A stretch of 8,047 nt of DNA from JALXCG01 sp026991065 [NCBI: Gemmatimonadota bacterium]. GTDB taxonomy: Bacteria; GCA-2686955. Under the pieces are notes generated by a model, which saw nothing but the letters and a program-made list of their open reading frames with translations, did not search any database and was not told the DNA's origin. Of the stretch, positions 156 to 7,983 are shown in pieces. The position numbers and the translations under genes were made by a program. The stretch's first letter is position 1; every line of letters starts with the position of its first letter. Location of the stretch: assembly GCA_026991065.1 (NCBI GenBank), contig JALXCG010000131.1, forward strand, positions 1-8,047, written 5' to 3'.

Positions 156-1390
156 GGGCGATTCCGCCGCGCGGGTGGGCGGAGCTGCGCCGCCGGGCCG
201 AGCGTCCGGCGCGAAGGCAGCGAATTGCCCAACCCGATCGCTCCCAACTCCGTCCAGGGAATTGCCCGGACTCCAGGCGCGATCGATTGCATGTCGACGC
301 CGCCTCGGCTCGGTCGGTGCACGATCCACCCGCGGGAGCTTTCGGCGCCTGTGGCCTTCATGAGCCGACGCAACGACTTCGCCATGGCTGGTGCGGGGGT
401 TCGCGTGGCCTTGGCTTCGATCATCACGAGCGAATGTTCAGGTCGCGGCACGACGAAGTCGACCTCCAGGCCCTGGCGATCGCGGAAGTGATAGATCTCA
501 CGCCGGCGCCCGGTGTGGATCTGCGATTTGACGATTTCCGACGCGACCAGGCCTTCGAAGAGCGGTCCCAGGAATGGAGATCGCGACAGTGCTTCTTCGG
601 ACTCGATTCCCAGCAGGTGAGCCGCAAGACCGCAATCGGTGAGATAGATCTTCGGGGCCTTGGTGATGCGTTTGCCGAAGTTCTCGTAGAACGGAGGAAC
701 AATCAAGACTTGCAGCGTTGTTTCGAGCACCCCGAGCCACTCCGTCACGGTGGGAACCGTGACGCCGAGCGGTCCGGCCAGAGCGGTCTTGTTCAGGATC
801 TGTCCCGTGCGAGTCGCGAGCAGCGCCAGAAAGCGCCGAAATGTTGCTAGATCGCGAACATTCAAAACCTGGCGAATGTCGCGCTCGAGGTAGGTCTGAA
901 CGTAGGACCGAAACCAGAGATCCCGCGTTTTGGGTCTTGCCACTACCTCGGGGAATCCACCTGCGAGGAGAGAGACCGATTCGTGTTCCGAGCGGGAAAA
1001 CGGCAGCAGCGAGAAGACAGCCGCGCGCCCTGCCATGGACTCGCTGACGCCCCGCATGAGGGCCGACTCCTGCGAGCCGGTCAGCAGCCACTGCCCCATG
1101 CGCTCCGGCGCGGCATCGATTCGGGCGCGAATGTGCCCCAAGAGTTCGGGCGTATTCTGGATCTCGTCGAGAATGACCGGAGTGGGCAAGTCGTCCAGGA
1201 ATCCACGGGGATCGCTGCGAACCCTGTCGATCACGTCGGGCGCCTCCAGAAGCACGTAGTGAGCCTCTGGAAAGCTATGCCGCAGGAGAGTGGTCTTGCC
1301 GGACCGACGCGGACCGGTCAAGACCACCGCGGAAAAAGCGCCGGCAGCCCGGAAGAGTTCGGGCCCGAGAGTGCGTGGAGTATAGTCCAT
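140..1390 (-). CDS. AAA_14/DUF4143-type P-loop ATPase
   Basis: This is a 416-residue ATPase of the widespread AAA_14 plus DUF4143 family, whose cellular role is poorly known; members are often mobile, with no fixed neighbours. The Walker A motif is GPRRSGKT (residues 26-33) and Walker B is PVILDEIQ (71-78). A sensor-like LLTGSQ (102-107) follows. Residues about 145-330 form the DUF4143 part: a winged-helix-like stretch (about 196-226), then PKIYLTDCGLAAHLLG (246-261), and a PD-(D/E)XK-like core with GLEVDFVV (307-314) and IEAKAT (324-329). Whether it cleaves DNA is not shown. I chose the ATG at 1390 because a promoter and inverted repeat occupy 1393-1426; a TTG at 1426 would add 12 residues encoded by that repeat, and no Shine-Dalgarno precedes either start. 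The last 34 or so residues (383-416) are Arg/Pro-rich, unlike the family, and run through a direct-repeat copy, so the native stop may have been lost. Confidence 0.9.
   Translation of the reverse strand: MDYTPRTLGPELFRAAGAFSAVVLTGPRRSGKTTLLRHSFPEAHYVLLEAPDVIDRVRSDPRGFLDDLPTPVILDEIQNTPELLGHIRARIDAAPERMGQWLLTGSQESALMRGVSESMAGRAAVFSLLPFSRSEHESVSLLAGGFPEVVARPKTRDLWFRSYVQTYLERDIRQVLNVRDLATFRRFLALLATRTGQILNKTALAGPLGVTVPTVTEWLGVLETTLQVLIVPPFYENFGKRITKAPKIYLTDCGLAAHLLGIESEEALSRSPFLGPLFEGLVASEIVKSQIHTGRRREIYHFRDRQGLEVDFVVPRPEHSLVMIEAKATRTPAPAMAKSLRRLMKATGAESSRGWIVHRPSRGGVDMQSIAPGVRAIPWTELGAIGLGNSLPSRRTLGPAAQLRPPARRNRPQRSC
163..181. repeat. 19-bp direct repeat, copy 1 (left of ATPase)
   Basis: The sequence tccgccgcgcgggtgggcg occurs here and again, identical and in the same orientation, at 1483-1501. 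A GGGCG block sits 2 bases before this copy and 3 bases before the other, so the similarity extends imperfectly to about 26 bp. This copy lies inside the atypical C-terminal tail of the ATPase gene, the other between that gene and the radical SAM operon, so the pair brackets the ATPase and its promoter. It may be a target-site-like or recombination duplication, although the sequence is simple and GC-rich. Confidence 0.6.
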
Positions 1391-1513: not shown

Positions 1514-2569
1514 CTACAGGGCGTTGAAGCTGAGATTGCCGCAATCTCTGCAGGTGCGCACCTCTTGTCGCCGGCCGAGGGCGTGCAGGCGGCGAATGCG
1601 ATTCAGGCCCTCGTGGGTCCACGCCTGACGCAGGCTCAGTTCCTGAAATCGCAGGCCGAGCCCCAGGTCGCTCCTGTTGCCGGCTGCGCAGCAGAAGTCG
1701 TAGTCACCGTTCCAGCGAATGCCGAGTCGCTTCCAGAGAATCGTACAGGGATACAGGAATCCCGATCCGCTGACTCGACCGTTCCCGCGCATGGTGTCTT
1801 GGTCTTCGCGCTGAGCGCGGTTCTCTGCGTCGGGCGAGAGCAGCGGCTGCACCCAGATCTCGTCCTGGTCCGAGAGCATCGCCTGCCAGCGTCTTCTGAT
1901 CGATTCGATCTCGTGCTCGGTTTCCGGCATGAGGATGGTCCGCAAAACCACCTGTGGTCGCGGGCGACACCGCTTTGATCGTTCCGCCAGAAAATGAGTA
2001 ACGTTCTCGATGGTGCGATCGAAATCCCCACCGACGCGGATGTTGTTGTAGGTCTCGCTGCTGTCGCCGTCGATACTGAAATGAACGCTCTTCACCCCCG
2101 TGGCCAGGATCGCTTCGGTCCTGTCCGCTGTCAAGAGCGTGGCCGAAGTGATGATCCGCATGGTGTCGATGCCGCGACTTGCCGCGTACTCGAGACACTG
2201 GTCGAAGCGCGGGTGCAGCAGGGGTTCCCCGAATCCGGTCAGGAGCACGTCGCAGGCCGGGGAGTGCGCGGCGTCGTCCATGATCCGGCGGAACAGATCG
2301 AACTCCATGGTGCCCAAGTCCCGGGTCTTCGCGTGGTAGCGCACACACATGCGGCACTTCAGATTGCAGCGATTCGTCAGCTCCACGCTGAGATGGGGAG
2401 GGAAAGGGATGAGGCGGTGCCAGGGAAGCAGGGACGCGATCCGCCTCACCGGTCCGATCTTGAAGGCCGCGCGGCCCCACGCTCTCACTTTTGCGTGCCG
2501 CAGCAAGCGCAGGGCATCCTTGCGGCGGGCCAGAAAATCGGTCGCGATCCCGGTGGCATATTTCGCCAT
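1514..2569 (-). CDS. radical SAM protein with SPASM-like C-terminal domain
   Basis: This 351-residue protein is a radical SAM enzyme that would use a [4Fe-4S] cluster and S-adenosylmethionine to generate a 5'-deoxyadenosyl radical. The cluster motif CNLKCRMC supplies Cys68, Cys72 and Cys75 (CX3CX2C). LLTGFGEPLLHP (109-120) is the SAM-binding GGE-type motif, and VHFSIDGDS (162-170) is a typical later strand. The C-terminal region has the SPASM/twitch pattern for auxiliary clusters: YPC (Cys275), WNGDYDFCC (Cys293, Cys294), a W-containing helix (QAW, 315-317) and CRDC (Cys340, Cys343), five cysteines in all. Relatives modify peptides, or sit in polysaccharide and natural-product clusters; the substrate here is unknown and no precursor peptide is evident. 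The ATG at 2569 is preferred over the GTG at 2587 because an AGGAG lies 8 bases before it. The stop of the NHL gene is only 1 base upstream, so the two are probably translationally coupled. Confidence 0.94.
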   Translation of the reverse strand: MAKYATGIATDFLARRKDALRLLRHAKVRAWGRAAFKIGPVRRIASLLPWHRLIPFPPHLSVELTNRCNLKCRMCVRYHAKTRDLGTMEFDLFRRIMDDAAHSPACDVLLTGFGEPLLHPRFDQCLEYAASRGIDTMRIITSATLLTADRTEAILATGVKSVHFSIDGDSSETYNNIRVGGDFDRTIENVTHFLAERSKRCRPRPQVVLRTILMPETEHEIESIRRRWQAMLSDQDEIWVQPLLSPDAENRAQREDQDTMRGNGRVSGSGFLYPCTILWKRLGIRWNGDYDFCCAAGNRSDLGLGLRFQELSLRQAWTHEGLNRIRRLHALGRRQEVRTCRDCGNLSFNAL

Positions 2570-2570
2570 C

Positions 2571-4712
2571 TCAGCGTCTCCTCTCACTCGTCCGGGCGGA
2601 ACCGGTGCCGTTCCCGGTCCGCTCGCCCGTGCAACCGCCTTCTTCGGGCTGCCCGTTACCGGCCGCCTCTCGCCGCGCTTCCGCGTGGACCGGACCGCCG
2701 GCGAGGGTCAGGTCCAGTTCCACCAGCCGATGTCGTTCCGAATCGGCAACGATCAATCGGTGCTCCTCTTCCAGCCACAGCAGGCCCCGCGGATAGAAGA
2801 GTCGCGACACTTCGGTGGCGCCCGTCCAGCTCCGCAGCCACTTTCCGTCCACGGTGTAGAACTGAACGCGGTGGTTTCCGGTATCGGCAACCGCGCACAC
2901 CTGTTCAGAGATGAATTCGAGTGCGTACGGGTAGTTCAGTCCGGCCGGATGCTCGCTCCATCCACCCCAGCGGCCGAGAAGCGCTCCCCGCGCGTCGAAG
3001 ACCAGGATTTGATGCAGCCCGACATCCGCCACGTACAGCCGATCCCCATGCCAGCGCACCCAAGCGGGTTGTTGAATGCCGCCCTCGGCTCGGCGCACGC
3101 TCCAGCGGAGCTTGTGGTCCTCGTCCAGGAGCAGCAGGCGACCGGGAATGGTCTCGACGACCGCCAGGCCGTGGCCCTTCCGATAGGAGATAGAGCGTGG
3201 ATACCTCAGTCCCTTCCAGGCGTTGGCCCGGCCGAGACACTTTCCCTCTTGGTCGAAGCGCTGAAGCCGTGAGTTCAGGGAATCGACCACGAGTATCTCC
3301 TGGCCCGCCATGCCGATATCCGTGGGATTGATGAATCGGCCGGGCGACTTGCCGAGACCGCCCATGACCACGGGTTTCCCGCCCAACCGAGAAAAACGGA
3401 CCACGCGGTTGTGAAAAGTGTCGGCAACCCAGATCCGGTCGCGACCCGCGGCCAGCAGGCCCTGCGGAGACTTGAGGGCCAGGCCGAACGGCAGCGCGCG
3501 GACGAATTCGGCCTCCACCGAGACGGGCGAGGTCGTTGCTCCCCGGGGCGGTTGCGCGACCAATCCGTTGCCTGCGCGCGGGCCCGCGGAGGGGAGTGCA
3601 CCGGTTTCCGGCCGCTCGTCATGCGCAATCGACCCGGCGGAGATGCGGTGCACCTCGATCCGCTGAATCCGATGGTTGTGGGTGTCCGCCAGCAAAACCC
3701 TCCCGCGCGCCCGATCGATCGCCAGGCCCCCCGGCAGGGACAGTTCGCCGATCTTGCACCCCAGGAGCCAGCTGCCCTGGCGGCCCCACGCGGCGATGGC
3801 CCGACCGTCCGGAGCAAAGACCTGAAGACGATTCCCCGCCCACTCCAGCACCAGGAGTTCGCCGGTGGCGAGGTAGGCACAAGCGGCCGGTCCGTTGAAT
3901 TGCCCGGGCCCGAGCCCCGGACCGCCAAGCGTGCGCAGAAGGGTACCATCGTTGGCGAAGATCGCGACCCGATGATGGAGCGCATCGCAGACGGCGATCT
4001 CGCCCGACCTGGCCTGTGCGACACCCATCGGAAAGGCGAAGGGATAGCGTCCCAGGTCTGTCTGCTCCAGGTCGCGCGCACCATTGCCCGTGGCCGGGAA
4101 GGCGAGCAGCCGATGCCGGCGCGTCGCGGCCACCAGAATGGTCCCGTCGATCCCGACGCACAAGCCCCTGGCCCCGACGAGCAGATCGCCTTCGATGCGC
4201 GCAGGATCGTCCAGGTAGCGGCCTCGCGGGTCGTAGCGGTGAAGCTTGCCCTCCCCGCTGTTCAAGACCAGAATGCGGCCTTCGCGATCCAGCGCCACGG
4301 CCATCGGCATGCGCAAGGGCACCCGTCCCTCGTCGGCATGCCGCAGATACGCGCGCGCACTCCCGTTCTCGGCGAAGAGGATCACCCGGTTCTTGAACGT
4401 ATCCGCAACGACAAACGAACCATCCGGAGCGGCCGCGACCCCGTAGGGATGACTGAAACGCACTCGACGGCGAGCAAACCCGTCGCCCAGGAAGGGTGTT
4501 GTATCTTGCACGATTCGAGGATCCGTCACCGGATAGGGAGCGTACCACAGCTTCGGAACTCGCACAGGTATTCTTCGGGCCGCGCGCGGCAAGCGACGCA
4601 GCAGGATTGGCAGAAAGGAGGGACGACGAAGCCCACCCAGGCGCCGCCGGACCAAGCCGAAGCGCAATTCTCCATCGTAGCGAAGTGTCTGTAACAGTTG
4701 CGTTGTTTGCAT
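2571..4712 (-). CDS. double six-bladed NHL-repeat beta-propeller protein
   Basis: This 713-residue protein consists mainly of NHL repeats, which form beta-propellers for protein, RNA or ligand binding. I count twelve. The first six start near residues 83, 132, 178, 223, 270 and 323 (for example VVADTFKNRVILF, VLLADTHNHRIQRI). After a Pro/Gly/Ala-rich linker (about 358-405), six more start near 412, 457, 500, 545, 589 and 636 (IWVADTFHNRVVRF, CAVADTGNHRVQF). Two six-bladed propellers are thus likely. The N-terminus (1-60) is Arg/Leu-rich with no convincing signal peptide, and the last 40 or so residues are a low-complexity Gly/Glu/Arg/Thr tail. The ATG at 4712 sits 5 bases after the stop of the upstream radical SAM gene; the frame stays open to 5315, but that extension lies antiparallel to nothing and in another frame of the upstream gene. 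No clear Shine-Dalgarno is seen, which fits coupled translation. A role as scaffold or sensor for the flanking enzymes is inference only. Confidence 0.92.
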   Translation of the reverse strand: MQTTQLLQTLRYDGELRFGLVRRRLGGLRRPSFLPILLRRLPRAARRIPVRVPKLWYAPYPVTDPRIVQDTTPFLGDGFARRRVRFSHPYGVAAAPDGSFVVADTFKNRVILFAENGSARAYLRHADEGRVPLRMPMAVALDREGRILVLNSGEGKLHRYDPRGRYLDDPARIEGDLLVGARGLCVGIDGTILVAATRRHRLLAFPATGNGARDLEQTDLGRYPFAFPMGVAQARSGEIAVCDALHHRVAIFANDGTLLRTLGGPGLGPGQFNGPAACAYLATGELLVLEWAGNRLQVFAPDGRAIAAWGRQGSWLLGCKIGELSLPGGLAIDRARGRVLLADTHNHRIQRIEVHRISAGSIAHDERPETGALPSAGPRAGNGLVAQPPRGATTSPVSVEAEFVRALPFGLALKSPQGLLAAGRDRIWVADTFHNRVVRFSRLGGKPVVMGGLGKSPGRFINPTDIGMAGQEILVVDSLNSRLQRFDQEGKCLGRANAWKGLRYPRSISYRKGHGLAVVETIPGRLLLLDEDHKLRWSVRRAEGGIQQPAWVRWHGDRLYVADVGLHQILVFDARGALLGRWGGWSEHPAGLNYPYALEFISEQVCAVADTGNHRVQFYTVDGKWLRSWTGATEVSRLFYPRGLLWLEEEHRLIVADSERHRLVELDLTLAGGPVHAEARREAAGNGQPEEGGCTGERTGNGTGSARTSERRR
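2578..2582 (-). promoter_or_regulatory. Shine-Dalgarno that decides the SPASM-type radical SAM start
   Basis: AGGAG on the minus strand lies inside the end of the NHL gene, 8 bases before the ATG at 2569. It favours this start over the in-frame GTG at 2587. Confidence 0.7.
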
Positions 4713-4717
4713 GGCAA

Positions 4718-6214
4718 TCACAACACTTTCAAGAAGCGTCGAACGAGCACCGAGCGCAGGCGCATGGCCAGATACCACAATAGTGGCAATGCGAACACCT
4801 CGTGCCGCACCCGCAGAGCAGCGATCATTTTGATGACGCTCAAGGGAATCCGCAGAAGTCTCCCCCGCCCTTTCGGATTCATGAACGCCAGTTTGAAGTA
4901 GAAGAGCGCCGGCTGACGCCCGAACGCATCTTTGGGGGCCAGCCACGGCACCTCGTGAACCTCCAGGTAGCCCCGGTAGAACTCCTCCCATTCCGCGAGG
5001 GAGTTCGGAAGCCTCTCTTTCCTCTCGTGCTCCACGTGGCGGTAGAGCCTGGTCCACGGCACCGGTGTGAACTGCAGCAAGCTGACCACGTTGCGAGGAT
5101 GGGCGCGACGAACCGCGCACATCGCCCGCAGCGACTCCATGAACTCCTCCCGCGTCTCCGTCGGAGGGCCGATCATAAAATTGGTGCGCACCGCAATACC
5201 GGAAGGGGCGAATCTCTCCAGCAGCAGGTCGAATTGGGCGCCACTGAAACCCTTGTCGTACAGGTCTCGGATTCGTTGCGAACCGCTTTCCACTCCGACG
5301 CCGATGCTGAGGCAACGTGTGGCTCGAAGCAGTTCGAACAGCTCCTCGTCGAACTCGAGCGCCCGCGAAATGTTGCAGAGGGCAAACCAGGAAAAAGTGA
5401 AGTTCTCGGCCAGAAAGCCCCGCAGGATCGCCTTGACGCGGCTCAGGTCAATGAAGAAATCAAAGTCCCAGAACGCCACCTGCCGGACCTGGTGCTCCCG
5501 CGTGATGGCCTTGATTTCGGACACGACCCGGGCGGGATTGAGGCCGTACCAAGTGCGGTTGAAGTAGGGAGCCGGCCCGCAGAAGGAGCACTGGAAGGGG
5601 CAGCCGACGCTGGTCGCGTAGTGGAGCAGTCCGTTGCCGTGTGAATACTGGCGTGGGTCGAGCCTGCCGTAATCCTTGGGCAGAAAGGAGTTCGGGTCGA
5701 CCAATGGCGGCGCGGGGTGGTGGACGATCCGCCCATCGCGTTTGTAGGAGAGGCCGGGAATGTCATCGCAGGCGGCCCCGCGGGCGAGCCTGCGGGCGAG
5801 TTCCGAAAAGCGCTCCTCGCCTTGCCCCCTGAGCGCCAGATCGACGTTGCCGCTGTCCACGCATTGCTCGGGAACAGTGGTTGGAAACCAGCCGCCCCAG
5901 ATGATCGGAAGTTCCGGGCAGCTTGCCTTCACGCGGCGCGAAAAGGCGTGGCCGTCCACGACCTGATACCCGCCCATCACGCTGACGCCGACGCAGAGCA
6001 AGGAATCTCGATGCTGCGTCAGGAGGGCCGAGACATCTCCCGGCAGACGCGCATCGTGGATCAGCACCTCGAAGCCCGCGGCCTCCAGATGAGGCGCCAG
6101 GGCCAGCAGTGGCAGCGGCTCGGCGATTGGACCGTTGCCGCGCGGCGCCGCGGGAGAAAGAGCGGGAAAGTAGAGAAGTACCTTCGACCGACCGCGCACC
6201 GCGGAATACATCAT
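4718..6214 (-). CDS. B12-binding-domain radical SAM protein
   Basis: This 498-residue protein has the layout of the cobalamin-dependent (class B-like) radical SAM family, whose members methylate unactivated carbons or phosphorus or perform ring and C-C chemistry (BchE- and hopanoid-enzyme-like). Residues about 10-145 form a Rossmann-type B12-binding domain (KVLLYFPAL, PLLALAPHLEAAGFEVLIHD, LPIIWGGWFPTTVPE, DLALRGQGEERF). The canonical DxHxxG lower-ligand motif is absent, as in many members. The radical SAM core follows with CPFQCSFC (Cys205, Cys209, Cys212), VAFWDFDFF (246-254), the SAM-contacting GVGVESGSQRI (305-315) and NFMIGPPTET (345-354). The C-terminal 65 or so residues are rich in hydrophobic and basic residues and could associate with membrane. 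The ATG at 6214 is chosen for the GGAGG 7 bases upstream; the frame remains open to 6319 without such a site. It is the first gene of the operon, 5 bp before the NHL gene. The substrate is unknown. Confidence 0.94.
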   Translation of the reverse strand: MMYSAVRGRSKVLLYFPALSPAAPRGNGPIAEPLPLLALAPHLEAAGFEVLIHDARLPGDVSALLTQHRDSLLCVGVSVMGGYQVVDGHAFSRRVKASCPELPIIWGGWFPTTVPEQCVDSGNVDLALRGQGEERFSELARRLARGAACDDIPGLSYKRDGRIVHHPAPPLVDPNSFLPKDYGRLDPRQYSHGNGLLHYATSVGCPFQCSFCGPAPYFNRTWYGLNPARVVSEIKAITREHQVRQVAFWDFDFFIDLSRVKAILRGFLAENFTFSWFALCNISRALEFDEELFELLRATRCLSIGVGVESGSQRIRDLYDKGFSGAQFDLLLERFAPSGIAVRTNFMIGPPTETREEFMESLRAMCAVRRAHPRNVVSLLQFTPVPWTRLYRHVEHERKERLPNSLAEWEEFYRGYLEVHEVPWLAPKDAFGRQPALFYFKLAFMNPKGRGRLLRIPLSVIKMIAALRVRHEVFALPLLWYLAMRLRSVLVRRFLKVL

Positions 6215-6221
6215 GCCTTGC

Positions 6222-6226
6222 CCTCC
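6222..6226 (-). promoter_or_regulatory. Shine-Dalgarno of the B12-type radical SAM gene
   Basis: GGAGG on the minus strand, 7 bases before the ATG at 6214, is a near-ideal ribosome binding site. It sets the start 35 codons inside the longest open frame. Confidence 0.75.
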
Positions 6227-6344
6227 GATGCCGACTGGTAAGGGGGAAAGACTAACACGTTCCCCGCTGCTCCATTGCGGCGTTGTGTTTCGCGCAGTCA
6301 AGTCGACGCACCATGGCACGCCCCGGATGAGGAGGATCTATTCC

Positions 6345-6410
6345 GCGGTGCCGGGCAAGGTCTGGCACCCGCCCCGGGACAGGTGGAGCACGCGCCGCAC
6401 CTGTTTCCCC
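6345..6410. repeat. two consecutive imperfect hairpins in the intergenic region
   Basis: The first is gcggtgcc (6345-6352) against ggcacccgc (6364-6372), pairing with one bulged base. The second pairs acaggtg (6379-6385) perfectly with cacctgt (6398-6404) around a 12-base loop, and extends to GGG/CCC beyond a 2-base bulge. They lie in the non-coding gap upstream of the B12-type radical SAM gene, so on the minus strand they could form part of its leader or of the preceding gene's trailer. I do not recognise a known RNA family; the canonical cobalamin-riboswitch box is not evident. Confidence 0.4.
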
Positions 6411-6431
6411 TATTGGCACACAACCTGGCAA

Positions 6432-6479
6432 GGCGCTCGCCCCAGCGCCGCCCATCCGGCAATAACCGAGAGGGGCGGC
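6432..6479 (-). terminator. overlapping hairpins after the membrane-protein gene
   Basis: Reading on the minus strand, the first hairpin starts 4 bases after the TGA stop at 6486-6484. It pairs gccgccc (6479-6473) perfectly with gggcggc (6453-6447) and contains a small inner cgg/ccg stem. A second hairpin pairs ggcgct (6449-6444) with agcgcc (6437-6432) and shares bases 6447-6449 with the first, so the two cannot form together. No T-run follows. The position suggests a transcript end or attenuation; in such GC-rich DNA the pairing could also be incidental. Confidence 0.4.
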
Positions 6480-6483
6480 TTAT

Positions 6484-7548
6484 TCAGTCGGCTGCCGACT
6501 CGGATCCACCGATCACTTTGCGGATGAAGGAATCAACGATCTCCTGGCGGTCTTGGACCCAAAGTTGGGACGAAACCTCCTTTGGGAACGCCATTTCGGA
6601 TCCCAGGTCATAGGCGCCTGTATTGGTGTAGCCGTAGATATTCAGGGCACCGATCATATTGCAAACGACCAAACAGAGCATTGCCGCACGATAGAGCTTG
6701 TGCCGAGAGAGGATTCGGGCGACAAGTATGTAGCAAAACGGAATGATGGGCATGAGGGCGCGCAGCCCCGGAGCAAACGCAAGCGGTATCCAGGTAGCAA
6801 CAAGGAACGCCAGGAGTGATCGCTGATTCCTGTAAAGCGACAGAAGGCGGCTTGGATGGAAAAACTCCCATCCAATCCACAGAAGGATCGCTGAATAGAG
6901 CGCAGCGATTGGCAACAGGAACGGCGTTTTGTAGAGTGCGGGGAAGGGCACGAAGACAAGGAGCAGGTTTTCCAGTGCTTTGACGGACCGTGCCGCAACG
7001 GTAAACGCTAGTGTTTCCAGTCCGCCACCGTGTATCGCGCCCAGACCCACTCCTCGAGACTGCATCGCCTGGTACTGAGTGAAGTAGTCAATTGCAATGA
7101 TCGCGAGGGTAGTCAGTAGCAGCACAAGAGAAAGAGCTATTCTTCGCCTGCGCAACGTGTAGATCGCTACTGGAAAGCTGTGGAAAACAAACGGAGACTT
7201 GGCAAGATTGGCCAGGATAGAGAAGATACCGGCACGCCTTGGGTTGTGGAGATTCAACCAAGCAAGAAGGAGAAATGTCGTCAAGATCAAGTCATTGCGC
7301 TGGGCGATCCAGGTTACTGGATACACTAGAGTTGGGTGTAGAAACAGCGCAACGACCGTAAGGGCCGCGTGTTTTGTCCCATTGAGTGCTCTATGTGAAA
7401 GAACGATGCAGATGTTAAAGAATACGAGACCGACCAATCTGTGCAGAAAGGCGCCCGTGCTGACCAAGGAAACCACAGGGTAGGAGATGTGCCACAGCGG
7501 CCTGAAGAAGCTCTTGAGGCTTAGTGCCATGGCCTCGCCGAAATCCAA
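6484..7548 (-). CDS. C-terminal part of a GT-C-like polytopic membrane protein
   Basis: The fragment is 354 residues from a TTG at 7548. About nine to ten hydrophobic segments can be seen, near residues 22-50, 61-80, 86-100, 106-130, 137-154, 192-203, 208-228, 244-260, 264-280 and 287-304. RPLWHISYP (16-24) and HPTLVYPVTWIAQRNDLI (71-88) match a pattern familiar from the TMTC-like GT-C membrane glycosyltransferases, which use lipid-linked sugars. In that family the first helix and an acidic motif precede the RPL motif; here they lie upstream of the start, beyond a TAA at 7576-7578 (see the whole-locus entry). No Shine-Dalgarno precedes the TTG at 7548 or the ATG at 7530, so independent translation is doubtful. 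G+C is 57 of 120 bases over 7081-7200, well below the neighbours, hinting at transfer. It ends 269 bp before the radical SAM operon on the same strand. The sugar donor and acceptor cannot be told. Confidence 0.75.
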   Translation of the reverse strand: MDFGEAMALSLKSFFRPLWHISYPVVSLVSTGAFLHRLVGLVFFNICIVLSHRALNGTKHAALTVVALFLHPTLVYPVTWIAQRNDLILTTFLLLAWLNLHNPRRAGIFSILANLAKSPFVFHSFPVAIYTLRRRRIALSLVLLLTTLAIIAIDYFTQYQAMQSRGVGLGAIHGGGLETLAFTVAARSVKALENLLLVFVPFPALYKTPFLLPIAALYSAILLWIGWEFFHPSRLLSLYRNQRSLLAFLVATWIPLAFAPGLRALMPIIPFCYILVARILSRHKLYRAAMLCLVVCNMIGALNIYGYTNTGAYDLGSEMAFPKEVSSQLWVQDRQEIVDSFIRKVIGGSESAAD

Positions 7549-7575: not shown

Positions 7576-7983
7576 TTACCCGAAGGTGAGCGAGTATGCA
7601 TAAAACGCATTCAAAATGAAGAGAGCAATCAGGAGGTTCGTGTGCTGGGAGACCGGTCCCTCTCTGAGCAGTTCACCAGTTGGTTGCCAGCTCGGGACTC
7701 GCGAGTAATCGCCCCGCTTCACGGTTGCTGGTGCAGCAAGAGAAGGGCTTAGGGTGGCTTTGGGCATGGGGGGCTTCGTCCTTGGCGCTTTCGACGTACC
7801 GGCGGCAAGATCCCTGGTTGGAAACCTGACGACTTCTGGAGCATCGGCAGAAGGAAGGAATCCTGGAGTTGGGAGTCTGCCGGTCCTTTCTGCCTGGCTC
7901 GGCGTCGCCATCCGGATCGACTTTTTTTCACGCACCGCTCCAGGTTTTCCAGGCGCCGGTGCCAAACGCCGCGGAGCAATCAT
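7576..7983 (-). CDS. N-terminal fragment of the GT-C-like protein
   Basis: This is a 135-residue open frame from the ATG at 7983. Residues 1-112 are rich in Pro, Ala, Arg and Lys with no recognisable domain; residues about 115-131 (NLLIALFILNAFYAYSL) form one strong transmembrane helix ending four residues before the stop. The true start is unclear: ATGs at 7983, 7911 and 7767 are all in frame, and none has a strong ribosome site (GGAG is only 3 bases from the first; an AAGGA lies about 11 bases before the third). Starting at 7767 gives a short cytoplasmic tail more typical of a GT-C protein. As a separate protein it would be a single-pass peptide of no known kind; I favour the split-gene reading. 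Confidence 0.5.
   Translation of the reverse strand: MIAPRRLAPAPGKPGAVREKKSIRMATPSQAERTGRLPTPGFLPSADAPEVVRFPTRDLAAGTSKAPRTKPPMPKATLSPSLAAPATVKRGDYSRVPSWQPTGELLREGPVSQHTNLLIALFILNAFYAYSLTFG

What the first reader, a model, noticed from the sequence alone, without database searches (positions are those of the whole stretch)
1514..6214. B12-type radical SAM, 12-blade NHL protein and SPASM radical SAM in one coupled operon
Three genes with gaps of 5 bp and 1 bp encode two mechanistically different radical SAM enzymes around a large propeller protein. I know of no named pathway with this trio. No small precursor peptide, methyltransferase or transporter is visible in the window, so the substrate may be a larger protein, a lipid or a glycan. 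The cassette is the best candidate here for an undescribed biosynthetic system.
Basis: partly seen in the sequence, partly recalled or inferred. Interest (0 to 1): 0.7.

Follow-up and report, generated by a model that had tools for sequence, protein, structure and literature searches.

The report
Two radical enzymes and a propeller
A bacterium from a barely sampled phylum has three tightly packed genes, two for radical enzymes of kinds often found beside surface-sugar genes and one for a large propeller protein; the set was seen nowhere else we looked, and what it makes is unknown.

Summary
Three minus-strand genes at 6214-4718, 4712-2571 and 2569-1514, with gaps of 5 and 1 bp, encode a B12-binding radical SAM enzyme (498 aa), a 713-aa protein with two sets of six NHL blades, and a radical SAM/SPASM enzyme (351 aa). 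Neither enzyme reaches a curated NCBIfam cut-off among those listed. The trio was found nowhere else: in 386 genomes the NHL protein matched only its own (E<=1e-30), and no NHL lies in the relatives' loci held; a lone NHL paralogue (44%) sits on another contig of the same genome. Relatives of both enzymes (33% and 38% identity at most) often neighbour glycosyltransferase, NDP-sugar, DegT or flippase genes; in two relatives the B12 gene directly precedes a SPASM-type gene in such a setting. My reading: a pair of membrane-associated tailoring enzymes of a surface glycan or glycolipid, with the propeller as adaptor. The glycan link is contextual; the propeller's role is unproved; the window is the whole contig, so missing partners cannot be excluded. 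An inverted repeat could mask the B12 gene's start codon. An interesting orphan operon, not yet a demonstrated system.

The parts
4718..6214 (-). B12-binding radical SAM enzyme, 498 aa, CX3CX2C at residues 205-212; basic helical C-terminus
   Evidence: Pfam B12-binding and Radical_SAM above cut-off; AlphaFold2 model pLDDT 88.4, folds like TsrM, OxsB, MgmA, TokK, AprD4
2571..4712 (-). Double six-bladed NHL propeller protein, 713 aa, no signal peptide by inspection, basic N-terminal 60 residues
   Evidence: Pfam NHL 132 bits; blade alignment; charge profile; its structure model is poor (pLDDT 39)
1514..2569 (-). Radical SAM/SPASM enzyme, 351 aa, CX3CX2C at 68-75, C275-X12-G-X4-C293 and C340-X2-C343; basic N-terminal part
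   Evidence: Pfam; cysteine map
6215..6483 (-). Leader of the operon; its arm 6351-6335 can pair with 6212-6196, over the first codons of the B12-rSAM gene
   Evidence: the repeat finder I1, 17 nt, 94% complementary; 0 of 400 random leaders have such a pair; whole-leader folding energy not exceptional, z -1.16

Best explanation
A three-gene operon encodes two cytosolic, probably membrane-associated radical SAM enzymes that modify one substrate, most likely a sugar or lipid-linked intermediate of a cell-surface glycan. The B12 enzyme would carry out a methylation or another radical step at an unactivated carbon, and the SPASM enzyme a dehydrogenation, dehydration or epimerisation-like radical step. 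The double NHL propeller between them would act as a scaffold or adaptor that holds enzymes or substrate at the membrane. Shown: the genes, their spacing, domain and cysteine motifs, the predicted B12-rSAM fold, the basic terminal segments, and the context of distant relatives. Inferred: co-transcription, shared substrate, glycan as substrate, membrane association, scaffold role, and the reactions.
For: Gaps of 5 and 1 bp on one strand. B12-rSAM relatives: of 8 loci with one or both adjacent genes scanned (11 fetched), 6 have a GT2, NDP-sugar epimerase or MurJ-type flippase next door (L159, L162, L163, L164, L166, L167) and 2 do not (L165, L168); the closest, G310, also has an O-antigen ligase and GT4 close by. 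SPASM relatives: of 13 loci scanned (20 fetched), 7 have a glycosyltransferase or DegT aminotransferase next door (L123, L124, L125, L129, L130, L131, L136), from 4 of 10 bacterial families. A B12-rSAM gene directly precedes a SPASM-type radical SAM gene in L032 (with GT2 and asparagine synthase genes following) and in G001 (there fused to a GT2, four-base overlap). Named plasmid relatives of SPASM (23.8-27.2% identity) lie near DegT/perosamine synthetase, AsnB and methyltransferase genes (Lawsonia, Smac51) or in the Brachyspira rhamnose plasmid; PMC4267127 (passages) predicts LOS or glycosylation roles for that plasmid's radical SAM block. In each of the three proteins the most basic 58-residue stretch (+12) is at or near an end. 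The gene upstream (7983-6484) encodes several predicted membrane spans.
Against: The relatives are distant, and no control on random genes or other radical SAM genes was run, so the excess of sugar genes is not quantified; 6 of the 13 SPASM loci lack it. L032 was looked at because a search had shown both gene types there. No glycosyltransferase is identified in the window; the upstream membrane gene has no Pfam match and is broken by a stop. No second occurrence shows that the three genes travel together, and an NHL paralogue exists without the B12 gene upstream of it. G001, the only other held genome of the phylum (84% complete), has only a weak NHL match (E 5e-5). The SPASM part of the G001 fusion is not BLASTP-similar to the window SPASM protein at E 1e-3. 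The DUF4143 protein next door also has its most basic stretch (+8) at an end.
Confidence: 0.42

Rival explanations
1. The enzymes modify a protein or peptide: the NHL protein itself or an unseen peptide is the substrate (RiPP-like or maturase-like system).
For: Best NCBIfam scores go to the RiPP enzyme ApyD for the B12 enzyme and to a tungsten-enzyme maturase for the SPASM enzyme, all far below cut-off. The PDB sequence matches include PqqE and SkfB for SPASM and TsrM for B12. A 67-aa ORF lies 37 bp upstream.
Against: The small ORF is not gene-like in codon composition. The cut-offs are missed by a wide margin (92.5 against 750; 103 against 380). No peptidase or transporter was recognised by Pfam in the six genes scanned, but the contig is short.
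Confidence: 0.2
2. The NHL protein is itself an enzyme, a cytosolic double propeller that forms or breaks a bond between the two radical steps, as the NHL-repeat propellers CylK and BrtB do in cyanobacteria.
For: PMC7081238 (passages) describes BrtB/CylK as propeller enzymes with NHL repeats that form O-C or C-C bonds. The gene sits inside the operon.
Against: No molecule named CylK or BrtB appears among the 38 PDB sequence matches at E<=1e-3, which are TRIM/Brat-type NHL, designed propellers, PAM, PknD and others. Conserved catalytic residues cannot be tested with one partial paralogue.
Confidence: 0.15
3. No joint pathway: three unrelated accessory genes brought together by chance in one lineage, each with its own partner elsewhere.
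For: The trio is seen once in everything searched. The NHL has a paralogue in another context. Nearby DNA hints at rearrangement (direct repeats flanking the DUF4143 gene; broken membrane gene).
Against: Gaps of 5 and 1 bp, and alike codon-position GC in the three genes, are usual for co-translated genes. B12-rSAM and SPASM genes are adjacent in two distant relatives.
Confidence: 0.2

Closest known systems
Class B (cobalamin-binding) radical SAM enzymes: TsrM, OxsB, MgmA, TokK, CysS; also BchE and HpnJ by profile
   Same: B12-binding domain, CX3CX2C radical SAM core, fold
   Different: 14-21% identity to these solved structures; no NCBIfam cut-off reached; substrate unknown
Radical SAM/SPASM proteins of surface-sugar gene sets (Lawsonia, Smac51 and Brachyspira plasmids)
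   Same: Radical SAM core with SPASM-type relatives, matches over 82-89% of the query, 23.8-27.2% identity
   Different: Those lie near DegT, AsnB, methyltransferase or rhamnose genes; here the partners are an NHL protein and a B12 enzyme
B12-rSAM directly before a SPASM-type radical SAM gene in G001 (L163) and a Bacteroidetes MAG (L032)
   Same: The two enzyme types side by side: four-base overlap in L163, no gap beyond the stop codon in L032
   Different: No NHL; the G001 SPASM protein is fused to a GT2 and not BLASTP-similar to the window's; the L032 SPASM domain is at the N-terminus and belongs to a larger protein (480 aa)
CylK/BrtB NHL-repeat propeller enzymes
   Same: NHL-repeat propellers in a biosynthetic gene set (PMC7081238 passages)
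   Different: Not among the PDB sequence matches; no direct comparison made; no alkyl-halide chemistry suggested in the window

Membership tests
Cobalamin-dependent radical SAM enzymes | B12-binding domain before a CX3CX2C radical SAM core | tested here: met
   Pfam above cut-off, motif at 205-212, fold
Cobalamin-dependent radical SAM enzymes | cobalamin bound and used in catalysis | not testable with these tools
   AprD4, a structural match, is a diol dehydratase; that it does not use cobalamin is recalled
SPASM radical SAM proteins | radical SAM core plus SPASM domain above the Pfam cut-off | tested here: met
   30.8 bits against 21.5
SPASM radical SAM proteins | full seven-cysteine motif for two auxiliary clusters | tested here: not met
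   Only C275, C293/C294, C340, C343 in the SPASM region; none beyond 343; motif recalled
Named NCBIfam families (ApyD, BchE, PhpK, HpnJ, W_rSAM_matur, ScyF) | score at or above the curated cut-off | tested here: not met
   92.5/750, 92.4/481, 88.9/600, 81.2/578, 103/380, 141/350
RiPP cluster | small precursor peptide gene | tested here: inconclusive
   One 67-aa ORF upstream, not gene-like; the contig ends 1.8 kb upstream of the B12 gene
Surface-glycan gene cluster | glycosyltransferase, NDP-sugar enzyme, flippase or polymerase gene in the locus | tested here: inconclusive
   None recognised by Pfam in the six genes scanned; present beside many relatives; contig too short
CylK/BrtB propeller enzymes | sequence similarity to CylK or BrtB | tested here: inconclusive
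   Not among PDB matches at E<=1e-3, but no direct comparison was made and I did not check that CylK is in that library

The most novel reading that the evidence does not exclude
A new two-radical-enzyme pathway in which a cytosolic double NHL propeller is an essential catalytic or substrate-presenting subunit joining a B12 enzyme and a single-auxiliary-cluster SPASM enzyme at the membrane, under a translational switch at the B12 gene's start codon.
Probability: 0.12. Interest if true: 0.65.

Novelty: new variant of a known kind. Interest (0 to 1): 0.36.

Why it matters
Relatives of both enzymes turn up in surface-glycan gene sets, yet in what I searched I saw no assigned reaction for them. 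An operon that pairs a B12 enzyme and a SPASM enzyme with only one further protein would be a small system in which to find such a chemistry, and a cytosolic double propeller as a partner of radical SAM enzymes would be new to me.

Tried and rejected
The NHL structure prediction from a single sequence failed (pLDDT 39) and was not searched. One search (first 98 residues of NHL, 372 genomes, E<=0.01) gave 17 places outside its own genome: 12 hold stop codons in the matched stretch; of the open ones G314 lies in an ORF that I take for a glycoside hydrolase from its sequence, G077 overlaps a complex I subunit gene (Proton_antipo), and G216, G156 and one of G348 lie in short frames of 63-121 aa that I did not examine. 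I treat all as chance. The best NHL match on a plasmid (Chlorohelix, 26.9%) lies among other propeller genes, a kinase and hypothetical genes, with no radical SAM gene listed in the 19.5 kb shown (that gene table is incomplete). The missing half of the C391 NHL paralogue was looked for on other contigs and not found. RNA families: none in the window at gathering threshold or in 6100-6600 at E<=1. A transfer or mis-binning origin was considered: tetranucleotide correlation of the window with four other contigs of the MAG is 0.66-0.84 and with six loci of other genomes 0.55-0.79, so composition does not decide it. First-pass scripts had faults that were repaired: one search used an out-of-frame SPASM query (replaced); searches dropped genes shadowed by antisense ORFs (one search used all six frames). 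Searches for closer relatives in the phylum of G103 (1 genome) and the order of G310 (3 genomes) added nothing. Adjacent genes not scanned with Pfam: 7 of 20 SPASM loci (L120, L121, L126, L127, L128, L134, L137; of L137 one gene two places away was scanned) and 3 of 11 B12 loci (L160, L161, L169; of L161 one distant gene was scanned). In one search only the two best candidates of each genome were scored; one search scored more of them in a 60-genome subset with the same result.

Full report
What is there. The window is the whole of contig C131 (8047 bases) of a MAG of 4.14 Mb in 902 contigs, 84% complete. Its phylum is represented by two held genomes only, this one and G001. Genes, all on the minus strand: a membrane protein 7983-6484 split by an in-frame TAA; the B12 radical SAM enzyme 6214-4718; the NHL protein 4712-2571; the SPASM enzyme 2569-1514; a DUF4143/AAA_14 ATPase 1390-140. 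Gaps inside the trio are 5 and 1 bp.

The proteins. The B12 enzyme has Pfam B12-binding and Radical_SAM above cut-off and, aligned with 49 relatives chosen from 76 (21-30% identity), gives a model of pLDDT 88.4 whose nearest solved folds are TsrM, OxsB, MgmA, TokK, CysS and AprD4. These include methylases, a ring-contraction enzyme (OxsB, recalled) and a diol dehydratase, so the fold does not fix the reaction. The three cysteines at 205, 209, 212 are invariant in the alignment. The NHL protein has twelve blades in two sets of six and no signal peptide by inspection; its PDB relatives by sequence are mainly TRIM71-, TRIM2-, Thin- and Brat-type NHL domains and designed propellers. The SPASM enzyme has a radical SAM core and a SPASM region with the cysteines for one auxiliary cluster. 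No NCBIfam cut-off is reached among the families listed.

A shared feature. In each of the three proteins the most positively charged 58-residue stretch of the whole chain (+12) lies at or near an end: residues 1-58 in NHL, 14-71 in SPASM, 439-496 in the B12 enzyme. In the neighbouring DUF4143 protein the highest is +8, also at an end. The last part of the B12 enzyme is predicted helical. Among its 49 aligned relatives the charge of the same C-terminal part ranges from -1 to +13 with mean 5.6, so it is partly a family trait. I read this as membrane association; that is inference.

Does the trio recur? None of the 77 has an NHL match at tblastn E 1e-3, and two (L032, L064) also have SPASM matches. 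The NHL protein searched in 386 genomes at E<=1e-30 matched only its own genome, at two places (two candidates scored per genome, 60 of these genomes, more scored, same result). The SPASM enzyme matched 74 of 386 genomes, its own included, at E<=1e-25, best elsewhere 33-34% in G103 (identities up to 35%, and 38% over part of the protein in G121). The B12 enzyme matched 26 of 386, its own included, at E<=1e-40, best elsewhere 31% by E-value in G310, and 33% in G001. In 20 SPASM loci fetched, two also had a B12-type match (L130, L136) and none an NHL match. Contig C7 of G089 has two B12-type and two SPASM-type matches. A six-frame search of the 164 loci held at that time, five copies of the window left out, found NHL only in the C391 paralogue. 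Many loci are cut by contig ends, so absence is not proof.

The paralogue. C391 carries the first 265 residues of an NHL protein 44% identical to ours, with the same unusual N-terminus; it runs off the contig. On the other side lies a divergent gene that I read as SCO1-like, followed by genes that I read as cytochrome oxidase genes (names are my reading of the sequence). No B12 enzyme precedes it. So this NHL type is not tied to the B12 enzyme. The N-terminal 98 residues were found elsewhere in no convincing case among 372 genomes.

Context of relatives. B12-enzyme relatives: one or both adjacent genes of 8 of 11 fetched loci were scanned; 6 have a sugar-type or flippase gene next door: MurJ in L159 (with Wzy_C and GT4 further on), GT2 in L162, a GT2-rSAM-SPASM fusion in L163, NDP-sugar epimerases in L164, L166, L167; L165 and L168 do not. 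By bacterial family this is 6 of 7. SPASM relatives: of 13 of 20 fetched loci scanned, 7 have a glycosyltransferase or DegT neighbour (L123, L124, L125, L129, L130, L131, L136); L133 has an asparagine synthase and a methyltransferase, L119 a sulfatase-family gene, L132 another SPASM protein, L135 a metallophosphatase, L138 a NIF3 gene, L122 no match. By family this is 4 of 10. No control count was made. In two relatives a B12-rSAM gene directly precedes a SPASM-type gene: in G001 (L163) with a four-base overlap (ATGA) and a GT2 fused to the SPASM protein, and in a Bacteroidetes MAG (L032), where two SPASM proteins, a GT2, an asparagine synthase and two further radical SAM genes follow. I looked at L032 because one search had shown both matches there. 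Named plasmid matches agree: Smac51 has radical SAM, perosamine synthetase, asnB and methyltransferase genes in a row, Lawsonia has the radical SAM gene next to a DegT gene with methyltransferase and asnB genes following, and L136 has SPASM, DegT, asparagine synthase. The Brachyspira plasmid carries several radical SAM genes among rhamnose genes, which PMC4267127 links to LOS synthesis or glycosylation as a prediction (passages only). Three Lawsonia records match each of the two queries; I did not check that they are the same three.

How it may work. I favour a two-step radical modification of a sugar or lipid-linked intermediate at the inner face of the membrane, with the propeller as adaptor. 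The evidence for a glycan is contextual and from distant relatives. Rivals are a peptide or protein substrate, the propeller as an enzyme (precedent CylK/BrtB, PMC7081238, passages), and no joint pathway. Held-paper searches for NHL with radical SAM, propeller with radical SAM and radical SAM with glycan terms listed no description of the trio; in the three papers the terms occur apart (passages), and the papers, PMC4267127 excepted, were seen as listings only.

Regulation. The leader holds a 17-nt arm (6351-6335) that pairs, with one mismatch, with 6212-6196, at the start codon of the B12 gene. In 400 first-order random leaders none had such a pair, and among 51 half-overlapping 304-nt pieces of the window one did. 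The folding energy of the leader as a whole is ordinary (z -1.16), and no Rfam family matches at E<=1. I chose this test after seeing the repeat, so it is a lead.

Verdict. A tightly packed operon of two enzymes of known kinds plus an unusual partner, so far a singleton. It deserves a better assembly and a wide search before being called a system.

Noticed in passing
window 7576-7578: In-frame TAA splits a membrane protein (7983-6484; several predicted spans) into two ORFs of 135 and 354 aa; the frame is open on both sides. It may be a pseudogene or an assembly error; the motif after the break (SDDF) recalls GT-C glycosyltransferases (recalled, no Pfam match).
   Followed up: partly
window 163-184 and 1483-1504: A 22-bp direct repeat (95%) brackets the DUF4143 ATPase gene, one copy inside its 3' end; elsewhere in the genome its 19-base core was found once, with two mismatches. 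The ATPase gene may have been inserted behind the operon.
   Followed up: partly
window 6196-6212 and 6335-6351: Inverted repeat that could mask the start of the B12-rSAM gene in the mRNA; possible translational switch without an Rfam match.
   Followed up: partly
L163 2019-5881 (G001:C30): B12 radical SAM gene overlapping by four bases a gene for a GT2-radical SAM-SPASM fusion protein (732 aa), in the only held relative of the same phylum.
   Followed up: partly
L032 2177-12261: B12 radical SAM gene followed by two SPASM proteins with the SPASM domain at the N-terminus, a GT2, an asparagine synthase and two more radical SAM genes.
   Followed up: partly
L136, L204, L206: Radical SAM/SPASM-type gene next to a DegT/perosamine-synthetase gene, with an asparagine synthase gene near, in three records; looks like a recurrent sugar-modifying cassette.
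   Followed up: no
L086 1-795 (G000:C391): Second NHL gene with the same N-terminus, cut by the contig end, divergent from a gene that looks like SCO1 beside cytochrome oxidase genes.
   Followed up: partly
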